From a virus, in the IMG/VR virus record IMGVR_UViG_3300035698_012088, positions 62,001 to 126,000 of that record: a stretch of 64,000 nucleotides of DNA. One strand, written 5' to 3'. Shown one piece after another: positions 2,577 through 35,096 of this stretch (the first letter of the stretch is position 1; each line of letters begins with the position of its first letter). Under the pieces are notes generated by a model. The model worked only from the letters and a program-made list of their open reading frames with translations, did no database searches and was not told the origin of the DNA. A program made the position numbers and the translations under genes.

Positions 2577-3247
2577 TTAGCAATAAAAAGAAACACGGGT
2601 TCTCAGATATCAAAGTTGTATTACATAGAGACGGATATGGAATTAGAGACTATCCAAAAGACCACTTTGATTTTATCTTTGACATTGGGGGCAATATTGG
2701 CCTCTTCAGTATCTATGCCAGGATGTTAAACCCTGAGACTAAGATCGTGGCCTTAGAGCCCTGTAAGGAGACTTATGGGTATATGTGTAAGAACCTGGAT
2801 GGATTGGACGTAGAGACACTCCAAGAGGCCTTAGGCAACGGGGATCCCCTTTACTTTAAGGACATTAAACATTTAACAGGTAACATGTTTTTAGAAGATG
2901 AGGATACTGCTGGAGGGTATGAAGTAACCAGTATGACTTTGAAGCAACTATTTACTAAGTACAGAGTAGATCTCAAGAAACATAAGGTCTATCTTAAATT
3001 AGACTGTGAGGGCGGGGAGGTTCATCTTATGGATACAGAGTCCACTACTATAATGAAGCAATTAGACCATGTAGGTATGGAGATTCACTTTGCATATAAG
3101 AATCCTAATTTTATGCATTTACCTAATTGGGAACAGTATGTAGCTTGGGTAGAGAATAACTTTACTAAGACTCATGTGGTCAAGTATGGTAACTCCAATA
3201 GAAGCAAATCTGTGGGGATGTACAATATAGTAAAAAGGATAGGTTAA
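2573..3247 (+). CDS. FkbM family methyltransferase (copy 1)
   Basis: FDFIFDIGGNIGLFSIYAR is the FkbM SAM-binding motif I, followed by IVALEPCKETYGYMCKNL and, near residue 143, YLKLDCEGGEVHLM, the family signature K-x-D-x-E-G-x-E. FkbM proteins are usually sugar O-methyltransferases. AGGAG precedes the ATG, and the start and stop overlap both neighbours. It is paralogous along its whole length to the interrupted gene at 4218-4901, so a duplication has occurred within this island. Confidence 0.85.
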   Translation: MISNKKKHGFSDIKVVLHRDGYGIRDYPKDHFDFIFDIGGNIGLFSIYARMLNPETKIVALEPCKETYGYMCKNLDGLDVETLQEALGNGDPLYFKDIKHLTGNMFLEDEDTAGGYEVTSMTLKQLFTKYRVDLKKHKVYLKLDCEGGEVHLMDTESTTIMKQLDHVGMEIHFAYKNPNFMHLPNWEQYVAWVENNFTKTHVVKYGNSNRSKSVGMYNIVKRIG

Positions 3248-4215
3248 TGGGATACTATCAATCAATAGGTACTAATAAAGGTTCCAGGGACTGTGAAGAG
3301 AGGTGGGAAGTTATTAAACCTTATATCCCGGAACACGGAGTTGTATTGGATATTGGGTGTGCAGAGGGATTCTTCTGTAAGAGAATAGCAGAGGAGACCA
3401 AGTGCCTAGTAGTGGGTCTTGAGAAGTCCAAGAACTGCCTCAAGAGACTTAATAACTGGTACACAGACTACTACAAGGGTAAAGTTGTTATCTGTAACAC
3501 GACCATAGATGACATAAAGGCTCAGAGAATGGCCAAAGCCTGTGACTGGGTAAACATGTCCATGCTGCTCAGTGTGTTACATTGGATTCCAAATCCAGGG
3601 GAAGTGCTTAAACATGTATCTTCTTTTTCAGAACAGGTATTAGTAGAACTACCTGATCTAGAAGATACTAGAGCTTGTGGTCAGGCCTATATGAATGAGC
3701 TTAGGGAAATAGGAGATATCAAAACATATCTAGAGAGCTGTACAGGTAGAGATGTTACTTTCATTAAAGCAGTTAAAGCCCACACCAGTGCCACCAGAAA
3801 CATTTGGCTAATTGGGGGAGATGTAGAGAGAACTTGCAGAGTTCCCCATGTAGATATGAAACTTCCTACTGCTAAGGACTGTCACAAATACCCAATTTAC
3901 AAACATACCTATGAGAAGGGGGTCCACACATTTAACCTTAAAGGCCACCACAGGCTCTTTTGGAAATCTGGAATCAACTTAGCAACCTTGAATTATCTCA
4001 ATGTAATCAAACCTACCAAGGAGTGGTTTCTGGATTGTGCCAGAGCAGAACTAGAGATCCACAAAAGAAGCAAACCCTTTAAAGGCGATGCCAGATATCG
4101 TAACATCGTAGTGGAAAGAGATGGAGTATACTGGATTGACTTAACTGATAAAGGCGGGAAGAATAGATATGAAGCAGAGATCCTTGCAATAGGACAACCT
4201 AAGGAGAGAAAGTAA
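3247..4215 (+). CDS. Methyltransferase fused to kinase-like domain (WbdD-like layout)
   Basis: Residues about 30-190 are a class I methyltransferase with VVLDIGCAEGFFCKRIAEE and VVGLEKSKNCL. The C-terminal 120 residues hold FKGDARYRNIVVERDGVYW, then IDLTDKG. This reads as a protein-kinase catalytic loop (D-x4-N) followed by a DFG-like IDL-T-D motif, as in LPS kinases. The order methyltransferase then kinase is that of WbdD, the bifunctional enzyme that caps O-antigen chains in E. coli O9a. The kinase part is short and lacks an obvious glycine-rich loop, so activity is uncertain. Confidence 0.6.
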   Translation: MGYYQSIGTNKGSRDCEERWEVIKPYIPEHGVVLDIGCAEGFFCKRIAEETKCLVVGLEKSKNCLKRLNNWYTDYYKGKVVICNTTIDDIKAQRMAKACDWVNMSMLLSVLHWIPNPGEVLKHVSSFSEQVLVELPDLEDTRACGQAYMNELREIGDIKTYLESCTGRDVTFIKAVKAHTSATRNIWLIGGDVERTCRVPHVDMKLPTAKDCHKYPIYKHTYEKGVHTFNLKGHHRLFWKSGINLATLNYLNVIKPTKEWFLDCARAELEIHKRSKPFKGDARYRNIVVERDGVYWIDLTDKGGKNRYEAEILAIGQPKERK

Positions 4216-4217
4216 CT

Positions 4218-4901
4218 ATGATTGGGGACCCAAAAGGAATAGCATTTACAGAGATTAAAACAATACTCTATAAAGATGCATATAAAATAAGAAAGTACCC
4301 TAGGGATTCCTTTGACGTTATAGTGGATGTAGGGGCCAATATAGGTTACTTTTCTATGACAGCTAGAATACTCCAACCTATGGCTAAAATTATTGCTCTT
4401 GAGCCTTGCATAGAAACCTTTGAATACCTAGCCTCTAATATGGCAGGACTTAATGTGGAATGTGTACAGGAGGCTCTAGGAAAAGATAGTCCTTTGTATT
4501 TTAGAGAGATGGTGGACTGTAGAGTTAATAGGTTTATATAGAAGGATGAATTGGGAGAAGAGGGATATGAGGTAAATAGCATTTCATTATCTACCCTTTT
4601 TAAAAGATATGACATTAACCCTAAAGAACAAAAGGTTTATTTAAAACTAGACTGTGAAGGTGGAGAAAGATTTCTGATTAACCCAGAGGATGAGGCACTC
4701 TTAAAAGATATTGAACATATAGGATTTGAACTTCATTTTCAAGGAGAAGATGGTATACACCACCTTACCATGCTTCCTTGGAAAACCTATTTTGAGTGGA
4801 TAAATCGCTTATTTAGTGAAACACATAACATAGAGTATTCTCTATCTAGAAAAAAGAATGGATACGGTACGTTTAATATAATTAAAAAGGAGACGGACTA
4901 A
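4218..4901 (+). pseudogene. FkbM family methyltransferase (copy 2) with in-frame TAG
   Basis: One continuous frame encodes a full FkbM protein: FDVIVDVGANIGYFSMTAR, IIALEPCIETFEYLASNM, then after the break VYLKLDCEGGERFLINPE. It is interrupted only by TAG at 4539-4541. Aligned with copy 1, the TAG falls where copy 1 has a glutamate (NMFLEDE versus NRFI-stop-KDE), so a single G to T change of GAG would explain it. TAG is an ordinary stop elsewhere here. The downstream half could restart at TTG 4551 after AAGG. Decayed gene, readthrough or sequencing error are all possible. Confidence 0.75.
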
Positions 4902-7090: not shown

Positions 7091-7744
7091 ACTATCTCTT
7101 ACTTTAGATGTAAATCCCTTATCGATATCCCCTACATCTACTTCATCAAGCTGGGTAAACAAATCTCTCAATCTCTTTTGAGCTAGGATTTCTAACCCGG
7201 CTTTTTTATCTTCTTGTCCTTTCCAGAAGGATTGGAAGAAGATAGGATCATCTGCTATTACATCTTCAACAGACTCCTCATCAGGGAATATAGCAAAACT
7301 TAGAGCACTAGGTGGCTTATAGATCCCCTCATTAGATAAGAGCATCCCTACAAAGGTGGCAATGTCAGGAGTGAAGTCCTGTTTATTATACTCATCCCCC
7401 TCCAAGAGCTTAACTTCTATGCAGCCCCACATGCAATCATCTATGTCAGCAGGGATGAAGATATCAGTACTATACCCTACATTAAAAGATAAGGTGTTAC
7501 ATATAGAAGAGAAGATTTCTATAGAGTTATAAAATGCTGTAGAAGTGAAGATAGAGATTCCAGCTTGGATCTTGTCATTCAAATCAGCAGTAACCTCATC
7601 TATAGCAAAGTCTAATACTATTTGCTGAGCTAAGACTGCAGGATCCCATTCCATGAACTCAGTTCCATATTTATCCATAAGAATAGCTAATACAACTGTG
7701 GTATAGGTTCCTGTGTTATCTAACATTTCAGCTGTATTTTTCAT
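7070..7744 (-). CDS. Unknown protein of the minus-strand virion module
   Basis: 224 residues, acidic, with a helical N-terminus (YTTVVLAILMDKYGTEFMEW) and a central beta-rich region. Its start touches the stop of the 631-residue gene at 7744-9639, so the three minus-strand genes form one operon read toward lower coordinates. I see no catalytic motif. A virion or neck/tail accessory role is inferred only from its operon. Confidence 0.55.
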   Translation of the reverse strand: MKNTAEMLDNTGTYTTVVLAILMDKYGTEFMEWDPAVLAQQIVLDFAIDEVTADLNDKIQAGISIFTSTAFYNSIEIFSSICNTLSFNVGYSTDIFIPADIDDCMWGCIEVKLLEGDEYNKQDFTPDIATFVGMLLSNEGIYKPPSALSFAIFPDEESVEDVIADDPIFFQSFWKGQEDKKAGLEILAQKRLRDLFTQLDEVDVGDIDKGFTSKVRDSLGRDAG

Positions 7745-9639
7745 TATCTACCTACTATGAGGTCCAGAGCCTTTCTTCTGTTTTGGGAACTGTGTTCTTC
7801 AGGAGCCACAATAGGGCCAAAGACATTAGACCAAGAAGAGTTGAAGTCGTTCTTGAGTTCTGGGCTATTAGAAACCTGATGTAACTGCGACATATCTTTT
7901 GCTGTGATATCTCTATCTTTCCCTAGTACCCCAGAGATCCAATCAGAGTATTTACCTTTATCTGCTAAGATGGTATCTTGTAGTCCTCTGATGCCAGATC
8001 TCTTTCCTCTTCTTTCCAAGGCTTTCTCTATTCTAGTCCTTCCTTGGATGTGTTCTCTCATTTGTTTCATCTCAGGAGTTTTTTGGGCTGTAGCAATAAA
8101 GTTGTCCGCCAACCTATTATTTTGGAATCCTGCTTGTACAGAGATATTAGAGAACAATTGGTTTATTTTACTCAACTGTCCTCTCCTAGCAGAAGCATTA
8201 GCAAAAGGCTTAGAGTTAATATATTTCTCTACACCTGTTTGGGTTAACCCTCCCATAGATTTCATCTCTTCTATATCTTGGTAGTTATACCCTAGTTTCT
8301 TTAAAGCCTTTTCTCTTTGGCTAAGAAGCTTAGTAGCCTGGTGGGATAGGATATTCAAAGTCCCAGAACCCATAGCAGTATATTTCTTAGCTACATCAGA
8401 GTCTAAGTAGTTTCTAAGAGTATCTTTAGATAACCAGTCACTAGCAGGGAGTCTTCTATTTATAGCCCCCAAAAATCCCTTTACAGATCTGAAGTTTTTA
8501 CTATTCTTCTTAACATGGTCTACCATACTTTTGGCTCTCTTTTCTCCATATAGATCTGTCAAAGCAGCATAGGAGGTAGCTAAGAGCTGAGACCCTAAAC
8601 TATTACTGGATTGCTTTATCTTAGAGAAGAGAGAAGAATTAACTTGTCCCTTATCTAGGCCCCTCATATCTTGTCCCTTTCCTGCAGCTGCGGCCAAGAT
8701 AAAGTTCTGAGTATTGGCTAAAGCAGACTCCGGAGACCCTGTAGTAGCATAGATTTGCTTTGCTTGCCCCAATAGCTGTCCCATTTGCTCATCACTAATA
8801 CCTGCTATCTCTGCACTACCTCTAAGATTTCTAAACATTTCTACAGTCTTGTCCATACCTAATGTTTTGATAGGGTCAAATCCTAGTTTAGAGATAGCTG
8901 TTGGCATAGCTGCACCAGGAGGTACACCTAAGAAGTCTCCCATCTCTGAAGCTGCTTTAGTATACCCGGACATGCTTTTAAACAGACTCTCTTTTGCCTT
9001 CCTAGAAAAGTTACCTCTCCTATCAAAGCTATAAGGATCGCTAATAATATGATTAAAAGACCCATTCAAAAACTGTTGGAATATAACATTAGCTGCATCA
9101 GGGGCATTAATGGCTCCCATCTTGTTAGTATTCTTTGGGTTCATAAGGACATTAACAGTGTGATCCATAAAAGCTGAGGCTCTTCTGTTTCTAGCCATTG
9201 TAGCTCTTCCCGCTAATCCAGGAGCTACTATTGGAGAATACACCCCAGCCTTCCTCATAGTATCCTCAGCAGACTCTAGCATCTTGTCTACCCCATTAGC
9301 CTTAAGCATTCCCCAAGCTAACATAGACCCCATTGAGGGACCATAGGCTGCTTGTTCAGCTTCTTCAGGAGACATACCAAATCTTTGCTGGTTTATCTTA
9401 GTAGCTAGGTTGACTTGAAACTCTTTCATCTTCCTAGCAATAGGAGTCATGCTTCTTTCTATTTCTTTAGTTCTTAGAAAGTTTAGATACTGCTTCCCCA
9501 CATTTTGGGGTCCATAGAGACCACCCTTTCCAAAAGTGTCAGATCCTTCATCAGATGTTACCTGATTACCAGTTAATTTTGGAAGGAAGGCTCCCATGGC
9601 AGGGAAATATTGTTGAAGTACATCGCCTAATCCGGGCAT
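7744..9639 (-). CDS. Probable virion structural or internal virion protein
   Basis: 631 residues, almost entirely alpha-helical, rich in A, G, K, S and M, with many GM and AxG steps (YGPSMGSMLAWGMLKANG; ILAAAAGKGQDMRG). No enzyme motif is visible. Such long, repetitive-looking helical proteins downstream of head or portal-type genes are often internal virion or tape-measure-like proteins. It is the largest gene of a three-gene minus-strand operon. Function is inferred from composition and context. Confidence 0.5.
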   Translation of the reverse strand: MPGLGDVLQQYFPAMGAFLPKLTGNQVTSDEGSDTFGKGGLYGPQNVGKQYLNFLRTKEIERSMTPIARKMKEFQVNLATKINQQRFGMSPEEAEQAAYGPSMGSMLAWGMLKANGVDKMLESAEDTMRKAGVYSPIVAPGLAGRATMARNRRASAFMDHTVNVLMNPKNTNKMGAINAPDAANVIFQQFLNGSFNHIISDPYSFDRRGNFSRKAKESLFKSMSGYTKAASEMGDFLGVPPGAAMPTAISKLGFDPIKTLGMDKTVEMFRNLRGSAEIAGISDEQMGQLLGQAKQIYATTGSPESALANTQNFILAAAAGKGQDMRGLDKGQVNSSLFSKIKQSSNSLGSQLLATSYAALTDLYGEKRAKSMVDHVKKNSKNFRSVKGFLGAINRRLPASDWLSKDTLRNYLDSDVAKKYTAMGSGTLNILSHQATKLLSQREKALKKLGYNYQDIEEMKSMGGLTQTGVEKYINSKPFANASARRGQLSKINQLFSNISVQAGFQNNRLADNFIATAQKTPEMKQMREHIQGRTRIEKALERRGKRSGIRGLQDTILADKGKYSDWISGVLGKDRDITAKDMSQLHQVSNSPELKNDFNSSWSNVFGPIVAPEEHSSQNRRKALDLIVGR

Positions 9640-30717: not shown

Positions 30718-32401
30718 ATGCAACCATTTAAGATAACAGTAGCACATAGAACATGGACCATCAAATCTTGGGATGGTATTTCTGATCCAGTAGAGGCAGC
30801 AGATGAGGAGTTCGCAGCACTAGATACTGAGACAGAAATGATCAAAGAGGGATCCCCCATAGTGCCTGTAATCCTACAGGTGTGTTTCCCCAGATCTAGC
30901 ACTGTATATGTTACTACTGCAAAACAAATGCCTGACTTCATTAGGAGAATGGATACACTAAATCCTGAATTGGAATATGTGTTTCACACCGCCCCCTTTG
31001 ACCTCAATGTATTAGACTTTAGAAATAACACACTATTCGCTGCCCTTAGAGAGGGTAGGGTTACAGATGTGTACTTGAGATATATGATGGAGAGCCTTGA
31101 TAGAGGCAGATTCAATTCCAATGCTTCTCTAAAGGCAATGGCGAAACAGCTGTTGAAAATAGAGTTAGATAAGAATTCAGATATCAGATGCACCTTTACA
31201 CTAGACGCTCCCTTAACAAAGGAACATATAGAGTATGCTGCAATTGATAGTATCGTAACAGCCCTAATCAGAGACATTCTAGTATCTAAATATGAGACTG
31301 AGCAGCTACAGCTACTCGGATATATAGCCTTGAACTCCATAGGGAGAAATGGCTTCCTAATAGACAGAGAGTATCTAGATAAGGTTAGGAAAGATGTAAA
31401 AGACGACATAGAATCCAAACTATATGTATTGAATACCTTTGGCTTTTGGCCAGGGAAAAAGAACAACACCCATGTGCTACAGAAGCTATTGGCTAGTTTT
31501 GAGACAAGATATAATCTGACATTCCCTAAGACGCCAACAGGGAAGATATCAACTACAGATGCCTTATTGGAGAAGCTGGGAGATAATTGCCCACCTTTCC
31601 TACACTGCTATAAAGAATATGTTCACTTGAACAAGATGATGAAAAACTTTTTAAGTGATAAATATATTTATGCAGATGGAAGAGCTCATCCACATTTTAG
31701 GCCACTTGTGGCTACAGGTAGAACAAGCTGCAGTAAAGTTAATATTCAGCAAGTGCCTAGAAAAGAGGGAATGAGGGGAATATATGTAGCTCCAGAAGGC
31801 AAGGTTCTATTAGCAGTAGACTATTGTCAAGCGGAGCTATGTGCTTTAGCTGAACACTGTTTACTAAATTATGGTGAGTCAAGAATGGCTGAGATTATTA
31901 ACTCAGGGACCGATCTTCATAGTTGGTTTGGTAAAGTATTGATGAAAGAGTCTGGATTAAATCCTGAAAATGAGTCCAAAGAGGTATTAAAAGAGTTCAG
32001 GCAGATGTCAAAATCTGCAAGCTTCGGATATCCTGGAGGCCTTGGGCCACAGACATTTATGGAATATGCAAAAGGATATGGGTTAGATATAGATTTAGAT
32101 GGAGCAAGGAAATTAAAAGAGGTTTGGCTAAATACCTTTCCTGAGATGAAGTATCATCTGAAACCCACAGAAGATACAATTAGCACAAGTAAAGAAGTAA
32201 AGAAGTATTGTAAAGAGCATTTAGATAGAATGTATTGGGACACAGAAACAATACAGGACTTATCTGGAGTTTTAAAGCAAACTGGTAAAACAGAAAAAGA
32301 GATAAGAGACATCACATTTAAGATGAATAGATATATGTCAACGACCTTAACAGGAAGAGTTAAAAGAAACTCAACTTATTCAGCAGCGTTGAACTATGTG
32401 T
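30718..32401 (+). CDS. DNA polymerase, family A - exon 1
   Basis: Exon 1 encodes residues 1-561 of a 660-residue spliced protein. The 3'-5' exonuclease shows FAALDTETEM (ExoI), VFHTAPFDLNVLDF (ExoII) and YAAIDSIVTALIRD (ExoIII). The polymerase domain shows VLLAVDYCQAELCALAEHC (motif A) and RQMSKSASFGYPGGLG (motif B). The unspliced frame meets TAA at 32401-32403. Exon 1 ends with T32401, so the joined sequence reads NYVFQGLAADGAK, the conserved FQGxxADxxK block. AAGGAG precedes the ATG. Confidence 0.93.
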
Positions 32402-33459
32402 AAACTTGTTGCACATATAAAATTGGGTGAATTCGGTGGAAGCCAACTTGACAATCTGCTTAGTAACTTGTATGTTATTAAAGGCAGATGGTAATACCGA
32501 GCCAAGCTTAAGCAGCAATGCTTTTGAAGGTGTAGAGACTAACTCCCGACTCCCTAGAGGAGAGTAATGGAGACAAGAGCGCCCAGCCCCTAGAAATAGG
32601 GTGATGATATAGTCCAGACTTACACAATGTCAAGGAGATAATATAATGTCAGGTTCTAAAAAGAAAGAGACTCAAGAAGAGTATCTAAGTAAACGTAGAG
32701 ACAGATATAGAGAGAAGAGAGCTTCCCTTACACTTGAAGATACTGAAAAGGAGAGGGTGAAAAATAGGAAGAGAAATAGAAAGTATAGATCACACCTCTC
32801 TCCAGAGAAAAAGAAAGAAAAGTATTTAAGAGACTGTGAGGCATCTAAGAATAAGAAGTTGGGTAATTTAACTAGCATTAATCTTATTTTAGAGACAGCG
32901 GGCAAACGGATTTGTTCTGTTTGCTCGAGCAAGAAAAAACTTTCAGAATTTTCTAAAAAAACCAAAGGTACGTGGAAGAAGATTTGTGATCTATGTTTGG
33001 TACAGAATTATAAAAATTCCTGCAGAAGGGAGTTTAAAGATATAAGTTCTCCTGTATTTTGGAGAACAAAAGCCTACTCAGTTAATTCAGGAGCCTTAAT
33101 TCGACTCAGGAAGAGACATGACCCGGCACTTACAATTCAAACATTAGATTACAAGACCTCTGGCGAAGATCTAATAAATCTTTTTTATAGGCAAGATAGT
33201 AAATGCCTTTACTGTGATATAGAATTAACTGAAGAGAATTTACATATAGATCATAAAGAGGCTCTTTTGGGACCTGACACCCATGCTTTAGATAATTTGG
33301 CTATGTCCTGTAATATATGTAACAGGGCCAAATCTAATCTAAACGAGGAAGAGTTTGTAGAATTATTAAAGGAATTATCTAAGAGAGTATGTGAAAAACA
33401 CTCTCTATCTCCAAGTGTAAGAGCGTAGTATAAAGAGACTACGGAGAATACGATTTTCG
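32402..33459 (+). mobile_element. Group I intron 1 in DNA polymerase gene
   Basis: 1058 bases. Exon end TATGTGT pairs with GCACATA at 32412-32418, giving a 7-bp P1 with the required U-G at the splice site; the intron ends with G33459. Core elements are visible: GGGTGAATTCGG with AAGCC (P), ACCGAGCCAAGC (Q), GTAGAGACTAA (R) and GATATAGTCC (S); R and S form P7. The HNH gene lies downstream of S, in the P9 side. Exon joining restores the frame and the FQG motif. Confidence 0.9.
32646..33428 (+). CDS. HNH homing endonuclease in intron 1
   Basis: 260 residues after AAGGAG. The N-terminal 80 residues are very basic. CSVCSSKKKLSEF and CDLC form a zinc site. The C-terminal HNH module is CLYCDIELTEENLHIDHKEA, with ALDNLAMSCNICNRAKSNLN (HNH with two CxxC knuckles). 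It would cut intronless polymerase alleles and so move the intron. No sign of decay. Confidence 0.88.
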   Translation: MSGSKKKETQEEYLSKRRDRYREKRASLTLEDTEKERVKNRKRNRKYRSHLSPEKKKEKYLRDCEASKNKKLGNLTSINLILETAGKRICSVCSSKKKLSEFSKKTKGTWKKICDLCLVQNYKNSCRREFKDISSPVFWRTKAYSVNSGALIRLRKRHDPALTIQTLDYKTSGEDLINLFYRQDSKCLYCDIELTEENLHIDHKEALLGPDTHALDNLAMSCNICNRAKSNLNEEEFVELLKELSKRVCEKHSLSPSVRA

Positions 33460-33542
33460 TTCAAGGCTTAGCAGCTGATGGAGCAAAATACGCCCTATGG
33501 TATTTATACTTAGCTGATTATAAGATGGTTAACTTTATCCAT
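33460..33542 (+). CDS. DNA polymerase, family A - exon 2
   Basis: An 83-base exon between the two introns coding FQGLAADGAKYALWYLYLAD and YKMVNFIH. FQGLAADGAK is the conserved helix after the O-helix. The exon ends on the H of the HDE motif (motif C), whose D and E begin exon 3. 1684 + 83 bases is a multiple of three, so the frame continues correctly. Confidence 0.9.
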
Positions 33543-33591
33543 AATAGACACGTCTCTTTCTAATGCTATATTAGTATAGGAAGGAGACATC

Positions 33592-34227
33592 ATGTATTCT
33601 GTATATATGTACACGCACACAAAAAGTAATAAAAAGTATATAGGTCTTACAAAATATACTTTAGAAAAGAGAGCCGGTAAAGAAGGCTGCAACTATAAAG
33701 GTTGTCCTAGATTTTACGATGCCATCCAACAATTTGGCATGTCTGCATTTAAAGCAGAAGTGGTAAAATCAGAACTAACTAGAAAAGAAGCAGCTGATTT
33801 AGAGAAAAAGATGATAAGGAAACTTAAAACCAGAGACCGATCTCTAGGCTATAATCTTCAACCAGGTGGATTTTGTTATCGTAGAACCAAAAGCTCTGAA
33901 AGGAGAAGGCGGCAACGAATAAAAACCACCTTGAGGAAACAAAGGTCTAGTTCTAAAGTAAGAAAGACAATGAGTAATAGAATGAAGGATGTATGGAGCG
34001 ATCCTATTTTTAGAGAAAAACAACTAAATATCCTTCAAACCTCTCCCACAGGAAAACCTAAAAAGAGACTTCAATGCCGCGAAACTGGAGAGGTGTATTC
34101 TTCTCAAGCCGAAGCAGCTAAAGTTTGGGGGCTTAGCAAGAGCTATATAAGCCGTTCTTTAAAGGAAAAGGATTTTGTTAGAGTTAACAAGTCCTGTGGA
34201 GATTATGTGCATTTATATAGATACTAA
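33592..34227 (+). CDS. GIY-YIG homing endonuclease in the P1 loop of intron 2
   Basis: 211 residues after GGAAGGAG. The GIY-YIG fold is seen in YSVYMYTHTKSNKKYIGLTK (V-Y-x(11)-Y-I-G), FYDAIQQFGMSAFKAEVV and the catalytic Glu region EAADLEKKMI followed by YNLQPGG. The C-terminal half is a basic DNA-binding part with a NUMOD/IENR1-like block (RETGEVYSSQAEAAKVWGLS). It sits between the 5' splice site and the internal guide sequence. Confidence 0.88.
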   Translation: MYSVYMYTHTKSNKKYIGLTKYTLEKRAGKEGCNYKGCPRFYDAIQQFGMSAFKAEVVKSELTRKEAADLEKKMIRKLKTRDRSLGYNLQPGGFCYRRTKSSERRRRQRIKTTLRKQRSSSKVRKTMSNRMKDVWSDPIFREKQLNILQTSPTGKPKKRLQCRETGEVYSSQAEAAKVWGLSKSYISRSLKEKDFVRVNKSCGDYVHLYRY

Positions 34228-34350
34228 ACATTGTGGATGTAAAACAGGGTGAATTGCTGGAAAATCCTAAAGCCTTTTGTACTATAGTGGTTGCACTTTC
34301 AAATAGGGTGCAGTACATTATCACTAAGTAACAATCAAAAGGATATTAAA

Positions 34351-34767
34351 ATGGACAATCAGCAGGCAAGCTCGAACCTAATACCTCTCCCAGGCCTATC
34401 TCACTATTATACAGATGGAGTCGGGAATATTTACAGTACAAAGAGAGGAGACACCAAAAAATTGAAGACTAGACTACACTATGGAAGAAGTGCTTCGCCC
34501 TACATAAGAGTGAAGGCAGCAGCGAAGAATTATTTACTGCATAGGTTAGTAGCATCTGTCCATCTTAAAAGGCCCCTTGCCAAAGAGGAGAGGGTAAACC
34601 ACAAAGATGGCGATACTGTAAACAACAGTCTGAACAATTTAGAGGTATTGTCTCACAGGGAGAATGTTGCTCATGCCGTGAGAAACAATCTCTACTGCTC
34701 CGGTAAAGAATGGTATAAGGCCAGAGAAGCTTCAACGACTATTCCGCGAGGAAGTACACTCAAGTGA
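34351..34767 (+). CDS. HNH endonuclease in the core of intron 2
   Basis: 138 residues from ATG 34351, chosen because AAAGGA lies 8 bases upstream; TTG 34291 would add 20 residues from intron core sequence. It has YYTDGVGNIYSTKRG (NUMOD4-like), then YLLHRLVASVHLKRP and RVNHKDGDTVNNSLNNLEVL with HRENVAHA, the HNH module of the I-TevIII/I-HmuI type. Its 3' end is also part of the ribozyme's P7 strand, so its coding and RNA constraints overlap. Confidence 0.85.
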   Translation: MDNQQASSNLIPLPGLSHYYTDGVGNIYSTKRGDTKKLKTRLHYGRSASPYIRVKAAAKNYLLHRLVASVHLKRPLAKEERVNHKDGDTVNNSLNNLEVLSHRENVAHAVRNNLYCSGKEWYKAREASTTIPRGSTLK

Positions 34768-34880
34768 GTGGAAGCGCCCTGCCCCTAGTAACTTAGGGTG
34801 ATGATATAGTCTGATCTGAATGGAAACATTCAGCAGCTGTAAAGCGAGCAAAGAGCAACGACCTTTGCTGAACATGAATG

Positions 34881-35096
34881 GATGAGATAATAGTAGAGTT
34901 GCCTCTAGGAGACGAGCTTCAAGCCAATGTCAAAAAAGTGGAAAAATATATGATTCTAGGTATGGAAAAAGTGATTAAACACGTTACAATAAAGGTAGAA
35001 CCCACACTAATGACTAGATGGTACAAAGAAGCTGAACCCGTGTATGATGAGGAGGATAATCTTCTCCTCTGGACACCTAAGATGAAAGAAATGTGA
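34881..35096 (+). CDS. DNA polymerase, family A - exon 3
   Basis: Exon 3 starts GAT GAG, giving DEIIVELP, the D and E of motif C directly after the H encoded at the end of exon 2. The following 63 residues (LQANVKKVEKYMILGMEKVI) match the C-terminal helices of family A polymerases. Ends TGA at 35094-35096, overlapping the next gene. Confidence 0.9.
   Translation, partial: DEIIVELPLGDELQANVKKVEKYMILGMEKVIKHVTIKVEPTLMTRWYKEAEPVYDEEDNLLLWTPKMKEM

What the first reader, a model, noticed from the sequence alone, without database searches (positions are those of the whole stretch)
33543..34880. One group I intron carrying two unrelated homing endonucleases, one inside P1
The internal guide GTGGAT lies just after the stop of the GIY-YIG gene, so that gene occupies the P1 loop of nearly 700 bases. 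A separate HNH gene lies in the core, and its 3' coding end overlaps the R strand of P7. Two endonuclease families in one intron, at two insertion points, suggests successive invasion of the intron by endonuclease genes.
Basis: partly seen in the sequence, partly recalled or inferred. Interest (0 to 1): 0.7.

Follow-up and report, generated by a model that had tools for sequence, protein, structure and literature searches.

The report
Phage intron with two endonuclease genes
A self-splicing intron in a bacteriophage DNA polymerase gene carries two unrelated DNA-cutting 'homing' genes at two different places, one inside the loop that marks the splice site, which shows how selfish genes can pile up inside a catalytic RNA without, as far as the sequence shows, destroying it.

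Summary
Removing 33543-34880 (and an upstream intron, 32402-33459) restores a 660-aa family A DNA polymerase; the intron splits motif C as H|DE. Only one group I core is present (Rfam 51.5 bits). The guide GUGGAU (34233-34238) gives the best P1 in the intron: 7 bp, with an adjacent 4-bp P10. The nearest RNA relatives, phage nrdA introns, have their guide beside the identical sequence GTAAAACAGGGTGAATTGC, but with a 9-11-nt P1 loop and neither gene in P1 or P6. Here the loop is 690 nt and holds an intact GIY-YIG gene. The HNH gene starts in P5/P4 and ends beyond the R strand of P7, as in HNH-only introns of other phages. In a survey of about 70 related introns, P1-loop endonucleases recur (GIY-YIG, LAGLIDADG, HNH; P1 confirmed by compensatory changes), but no other carried two. 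Independent acquisition is therefore well supported; the order is not resolved. Added here: the GIY-YIG ribosome-binding site lies in a strong hairpin with a sigma70-like promoter inside it, the T4 I-TevI layout. P1-loop and double-endonuclease introns are known from fungal mitochondria. New variant of a known kind; splicing and cleavage untested.

The parts
30718..32401 (+). DNA polymerase (family A) exon 1
32402..33459 (+). Intron 1 of the same gene, group I, with ordinary short P1 (TATGTGT/GCACATA, 9-nt loop) and an HNH/EndoVII-type ORF 3' of its core
   Evidence: Rfam 49.9 bits, E 2e-11; P1; exon join
32646..33428 (+). HNH/endonuclease VII-like ORF of intron 1 (260 aa)
   Evidence: PF01844 8.6e-7, phrog_1035 7.7e-18
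33460..33542 (+). DNA polymerase exon 2 (83 nt), ends ...FIH
33536..33542 (+). P1 5' strand, TATCCAT (exon side)
33543..34880 (+). Intron 2: group I intron carrying two endonuclease genes
   Evidence: Rfam 51.5 bits; exon junction HDE
33545..33572 (+). Sigma70-like promoter TAGACA-16-TATATT with TG before the -10, inside the hairpin
   Evidence: 10 of 12 matches; about 0.06 per kb on the + strand of the window; inference
33552..33588 (+). RNA hairpin pairing the GIY-YIG Shine-Dalgarno (AGGAG 33582-33586)
   Evidence: -18.9 kcal/mol, z -4.7, 0 of 200 shuffles as good
33592..34227 (+). GIY-YIG endonuclease gene (211 aa) in the P1 loop
   Evidence: PF01541 1.5e-5; phrog_314 1.1e-19
34229..34232 (+). 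P10 strand CATT, pairs with 3' exon GATG 34881-34884
   Evidence: sequence
34233..34239 (+). P1 3' strand / internal guide sequence GTGGAT(G)
34244..34251 (+). P3 5' strand
   Evidence: Rfam alignment
34255..34260 (+). P4 5' strand (P element)
34351..34767 (+). HNH endonuclease gene (138 aa) in the P6 region; ATG in the P5 3' strand, first codons = Q strand, end beyond the R strand of P7
   Evidence: PF13392 2.2e-7; phrog_959 1.4e-24; I-HmuI 6.7e-5
34359..34364 (+). P4 3' strand (Q element), within codons 3-5 of the HNH gene
34737..34742 (+). P7 5' strand (R element), inside the HNH ORF
34775..34782 (+). P3 3' strand
34806..34811 (+). P7 3' strand (S element)
34881..35096 (+). DNA polymerase exon 3, starts DEIIVELPLG

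Best explanation
This is one mobile group I intron (IA-like) in motif C of a phage family A DNA polymerase gene. It has acquired two unrelated homing endonuclease genes in separate events. The GIY-YIG gene fills the P1 loop: the exon end UAUCCAU pairs with a guide 690 nt downstream, so the gene is looped out and the core is not interrupted. The HNH gene fills the P6 region and shares its ends with P5/P4 and P7. Each protein presumably cuts intron-free polymerase alleles so that repair copies the intron (inferred from family). Proposed control (inferred): long polymerase transcripts fold the GIY-YIG ribosome site into a hairpin, and a promoter inside that hairpin makes short transcripts that free it. 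The HNH ribosome site and start codon lie in the P5 region, so RNA folding and HNH translation should exclude one another.
For: Exact splice sites from the restored polymerase. Single core. Unique 7-bp P1 and 4-bp P10. Sister introns with identical sequence 3' of the guide and 9-11-nt loops. RNA tree clade, support 0.957, whose other members have no gene in P1 or P6. HNH-only relatives with the same edges. P1-loop endonucleases elsewhere, with P1 across the ORF at the same spacing and compensatory changes, e.g. L232 CAGGGCT/GGTCCTG versus L248 CTGGGCT/GGTCCAG. Hairpin and promoter.
Against: No splicing, expression or cleavage data. The GIY-YIG protein has only distant relatives (about 35-44% over 93 residues), so selection on it cannot be measured. 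The 3' end of the GIY-YIG gene has a local stretch that could pair with the guide (-5.8 kcal/mol, partly G-U). Some sister introns have an HNH-like gene downstream of the core, so they are not gene-free in every case. The autorepressor operator test was not significant. Promoter and hairpin are predictions on one sequence.
Confidence: 0.9

Rival explanations
1. Two introns or a twintron: the GIY-YIG gene belongs to its own, perhaps degenerate, intron nested in or placed before the HNH-bearing intron.
For: The same gene has another intron only 83 nt upstream, and neighbouring or tandem introns each with their own gene occur in phages (L182 with three in one gene; phiNIT1, PMC11878797).
Against: No second core between 33400 and 34200 at E 1; no coding exon between the genes; the guide and P10 strand for the 33542 splice site lie after the GIY-YIG stop; sister introns have that guide at the same place.
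Confidence: 0.03
2. The GIY-YIG gene is a passenger: a free-standing endonuclease gene that sits in the P1 loop because it tolerates insertions, and does not home this intron; HNH alone moves the intron.
For: The GIY-YIG relatives found lie in varied places, some outside introns; the HNH family is repeatedly tied to the same intron position.
Against: GIY-YIG genes repeatedly occupy the P1 loop of phage introns as the only endonuclease (L112, L232, L248), which suggests that they can mobilise introns.
Confidence: 0.3
3. The HNH and GIY-YIG genes entered together as one unit rather than successively.
For: Order cannot be resolved; only one intron with both is known here.
Against: They sit at separate loops with the core strands P3, P4 and P5 between them, and each is found alone at its position in other introns.
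Confidence: 0.08
4. The P1 loop assignment is wrong and the gene sits in P2, with a short P1 near the 5' splice site.
For: HNH-bearing relatives have a P2 stem (KP13-7, GEC).
Against: No pairing of 4 bp or more with the exon end within 200 nt; only about 5 nt separate the guide from P3, leaving no room for P2; sisters align base for base.
Confidence: 0.02

Closest known systems
T4 td intron with I-TevI (PMC2988022)
   Same: Group I intron in a phage DNA-metabolism gene; GIY-YIG endonuclease; ribosome site held in a hairpin with a promoter placed so that short transcripts escape it; an endonuclease gene overlapping the core
   Different: One endonuclease only; here the GIY-YIG gene is in the P1 loop and a second, HNH gene overlaps the core; the promoter here is sigma70-like and predicted only
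HNH-bearing phage introns: Klebsiella KP13-7 nrdA, Salmonella GEC_vB_MG and Pectobacterium CB7 DNA polymerase
   Same: Homologous HNH protein (48-61% identity) starting at M-(D/G)-N-Q-Q on the Q strand; in GEC also overlapping the R strand
   Different: Short P1 plus P2, no second gene, other genes or other sites
Phage nrdA introns L022, L042, L092, L099 (IMG/VR)
   Same: Nearest RNA core; L022, L042 and L092 have the identical GTAAAACAGGGTGAATTGC after the guide
   Different: P1 loop of 9-11 nt, P6 short, neither gene inside
Fungal mitochondrial introns with two endonuclease genes: Hypomyces cox2-i1 (PMC4964425), Chrysoporthe (PMC4894602), Agaricus cox1 iAbi11 (PMC2987802)
   Same: Two endonucleases, sometimes of two families, in one group I intron; a P1-loop LAGLIDADG is also reported (Hypomyces cox3-i2)
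   Different: Organelle introns, LAGLIDADG with GIY-YIG, sometimes one gene interrupting the other; here GIY-YIG with HNH in separate loops of a phage intron
Bastillevirinae introns (PMC11878797)
   Same: Group I introns with endonuclease genes in phage polymerases; short internal exons
   Different: Most have at most one gene; in phiNIT1 two endonuclease types were put down to two introns

Membership tests
Group I intron | P3-P4-P5-P6-P7-P8 core with P/Q and R/S | tested here: met
   RF00028 51.5 bits over the 50-bit cut-off, full model 1-253
Group I intron | U-G pair at the 5' splice site in P1, guide next to P3, G at the intron end | tested here: met
   U33542-G34233; guide 34233-34238; last intron base G34880
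Group I intron | Exact excision restores the host gene | tested here: met
   660-aa polymerase with motif C
Group I intron | Self-splicing | not testable with these tools
   needs RNA
Group IA subgroup | Extra P7.1/P7.2 pairings between P7 and P3' | tested here: inconclusive
   TTCC/GGAA and CACTCAAGTGAGTG at 34743-34771 read by eye; no subgroup model was run
GIY-YIG homing endonuclease | Catalytic domain with GIY...YIG, Arg, Glu, Asn | tested here: met
   PF01541 above cut-off (25.7 vs 22.6 bits); Y, YIG, R, E, N positions kept in the alignment
GIY-YIG homing endonuclease | Cuts the intronless allele | not testable with these tools
   needs a cleavage assay
HNH homing endonuclease (I-HmuI-like) | HNH motif and homology to I-HmuI | tested here: met
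   PF13392 above cut-off; 1u3e 6.7e-5
HNH homing endonuclease (I-HmuI-like) | C-terminal DNA-binding region of I-HmuI | tested here: inconclusive
   I-HmuI match covers residues 17-111 only; protein is 138 aa; no NUMOD hit
Twintron | Two complete cores, one inside the other or in tandem | tested here: not met
   one core in 33543-34880
I-TevI-type expression switch | Hairpin over the ribosome site plus promoter within it | tested here: met
   hairpin -18.9 kcal/mol, z -4.7; promoter inside; predicted, not measured
I-TevI-type expression switch | Operator resembling the homing site | tested here: inconclusive
   13 of 17 matches at the promoter, but 226 of 500 shuffles score as well

The most novel reading that the evidence does not exclude
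The P1 loop is a general but undescribed docking site for endonuclease genes in phage group I introns, used independently by GIY-YIG, LAGLIDADG and HNH genes. This intron is doubly occupied, with each gene under its own switch: a promoter within a hairpin for the P1-loop gene, and ribozyme folding itself for the core-overlapping gene.
Probability: 0.4. Interest if true: 0.65.

Novelty: new variant of a known kind. Interest (0 to 1): 0.47.

Why it matters
It catches intermediate stages of how mobile introns are assembled: RNA cores without genes in P1 or P6, cores with one gene at either of two places, and one core with both. It gives a natural test of whether two endonucleases in one intron cooperate, compete or replace each other. 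It also shows that a 690-nt gene can sit between the two strands of P1, the helix that chooses the 5' splice site, apparently without loss of the intron from an essential polymerase motif.

Tried and rejected
Single-sequence protein searches of viral contigs with the GIY-YIG, HNH and polymerase proteins found no relative. Rfam's own P1/P2 placement inside the GIY-YIG ORF was rejected because it ignores the exon junction. An I-TevI-like operator was looked for and is not significant. A search for the same motif C insertion (H|DE) in the loci held gave only the window itself and two false pairs. Apparent two-gene introns L093 and L182 proved, on inspection, to be neighbouring introns with one gene each. 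L106 and L111 had unreliable core assignment and were not counted. The wider literature search did not find a phage intron with two endonuclease families, but most subscription papers are not held. One read failed on a short search term and was not repeated, and the group I intron database paper held nothing on gene position.

Full report
Setting. The window is positions 62001-126000 of a 159,412-base IMG/VR virus record. A family A DNA polymerase gene runs from 30718 to 35096 and is cut by two group I introns, 32402-33459 and 33543-34880, with an 83-nt exon between them. Joining 30718-32401, 33460-33542 and 34881-35096 gives an uninterrupted 660-aa protein that matches DNA_pol_A almost to its end (110.2 bits, profile 45-380 of 381), against 80.2 bits for the first exon alone.

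One intron, one core. Rfam's group I model matches 34175-34833 with 51.5 bits, over the family cut-off. A permissive scan of 33400-35000 found no second core. The upstream intron has its own core (49.9 bits) and an ordinary P1 with a 9-nt loop.

P1 encloses the GIY-YIG gene. For the fixed splice site U33542, every G-starting stretch of the intron was scored for pairing with the exon end. The best is 34233 (GTGGATG, 7 bp, -6.2 kcal/mol); the next lie inside the GIY-YIG gene at 33866 and 34196; none with 4 or more pairs lies within 200 nt of the splice site. The four bases before the guide, CATT, pair with the first four of exon 3, GATG (P10). Independent support comes from the nearest RNA relatives. 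In a tree of core segments the window's intron falls with phage nrdA introns (support 0.957). Several of those carry GTAAAACAGGGTGAATTGC, identical to the window, directly after their own guide GCAGAA, and their P1 loop is only 9-11 nt. So the guide position is homologous and the 690-nt loop is the derived state.

P1-loop genes are recurrent. In about 70 dereplicated introns sharing the 3' core motif (76 assigned cores, of which two are copies of the window's own), eight others have an endonuclease gene whose end abuts or overlaps the guide/P3/P4 region: GIY-YIG (L089, L112, L133) and LAGLIDADG (L025, L029, L045, L048, L127). L232 and L248 (GIY-YIG) and L259, L262 and L264 (HNH) add to these. 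In L025, L029, L112, L127, L232 and L248 a 7-8-bp P1 is found with the guide 18-22 nt before the P element, as in the window (19 nt). The close pair L232/L248 shows a compensatory change (CAGGGCT/GGTCCTG versus CTGGGCT/GGTCCAG), and L029/L025 differ by several. That is direct comparative evidence that P1 can form around a whole gene. It also means that the P1 position alone is not what sets this intron apart. For L045, L048, L089 and L133 the P1 could not be fixed, so there the position upstream of the core is shown but P1 is inferred.

The HNH gene. It belongs to phrog_959 and is related to I-HmuI. Its homologues in Klebsiella phage KP13-7 (nrdA intron), Salmonella phage GEC_vB_MG and Pectobacterium phage CB7 (DNA polymerase introns) start at the same place, with M-(D/G)-N-Q-Q encoded by the P5 3' strand and the Q strand. 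GEC's gene also runs over the R strand, so this overlap is shared, not new. Those introns, and the further IMG/VR relatives L266-L276, have no recognised endonuclease gene in a P1 loop.

Two genes in one intron. Among the surveyed introns the window's is the only one with two endonuclease genes in one core. L093 and L182 looked similar but are neighbouring introns with one gene each. The caveat is that genes were recognised by similarity to seeds, so unknown kinds could be missed. The pattern of neither in P1/P6 (nrdA sisters), HNH only, P1-loop only, and both supports independent acquisition. The order is unresolved.

Expression. The GIY-YIG Shine-Dalgarno (33582-33586) lies in the 3' arm of a 10+6-bp hairpin (-18.9 kcal/mol, z -4.7). 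A sigma70-like promoter with TG before the -10 box (TAGACA-16-TATATT, 33545-33572) sits so that its start, near 33579, would leave out the 5' arm. Sites this good occur about 0.06 per kb on this strand of the window, so one landing in a given 15-nt stretch has a chance near 0.001; the site was noticed before the stretch was named, so that figure is a guide only. [quoted passage not shown] The HNH ribosome site is also paired in the P5 extension in the predicted fold. Both are predictions. An I-TevI-like operator was not supported.

Relation to what is known. Endonuclease genes overlapping the core are described (PMC3984707). Two endonucleases of two families in one group I intron, and P1-loop genes, are described in fungal mitochondria (PMC4964425; PMC4894602). 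In the Bastillevirinae study most phage introns had at most one gene, and the phiNIT1 case was put down to two introns (PMC11878797). I found no phage intron with two endonuclease families in the held literature, which is incomplete. I therefore call this a new variant of a known kind.

Noticed in passing
L259 about 2963-3889, L262 about 7439-8368, L264 (- strand) about 3649-4575: In dUTPase-like gene introns an HNH gene of about 308 aa starts in the P1 loop and stays open through the whole ribozyme core: its last residues (VKQGELLEKPEE..NQQPS...EGSTTN...TSALP...DDIV) are encoded by P3, P4, Q, R, P3', P8 and S. P1 differs in a compensatory way between L259 (AACGGT/GCCGTT) and L262/L264 (AACCTT/GAGGTT).
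   Followed up: partly
L139, L145, L164, L174, L182, L185, L194, L206 and others: Unrelated endonuclease genes (HNH, LAGLIDADG, GIY-YIG) in phage introns begin with the same peptide MDNQQ because the start codon and first codons are the P5 3' strand and Q strand (ATGGAYAATCAGCAG). The scan selected for this motif, so its frequency is not known.
   Followed up: partly
L182 3350-5600: A phage structural gene carries three neighbouring group I introns, at least two with their own LAGLIDADG-like gene.
   Followed up: no
window 32402-33459: The first intron of the polymerase gene has its endonuclease gene (endonuclease VII/HNH type) after the core; the polymerase gene thus carries three endonuclease genes of different types, and its middle exon is only 83 nt, so exon skipping of the kind reported for phages Twort and SIOphi (PMC11878797) would shift the frame.
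   Followed up: partly
window 34205-34241: The last codons of the GIY-YIG gene (TGCATTTAT) can pair with the guide (9 bp, several G-U, -5.8 kcal/mol) and could compete with P1.
   Followed up: no
L265 2550-2790: A MAG labelled Dehalococcoidia (CALGTL010000115.1) holds a contig with the same nrdA intron as phage contigs L022/L114/L122; it may be a phage contig binned with the bacterium.
   Followed up: no
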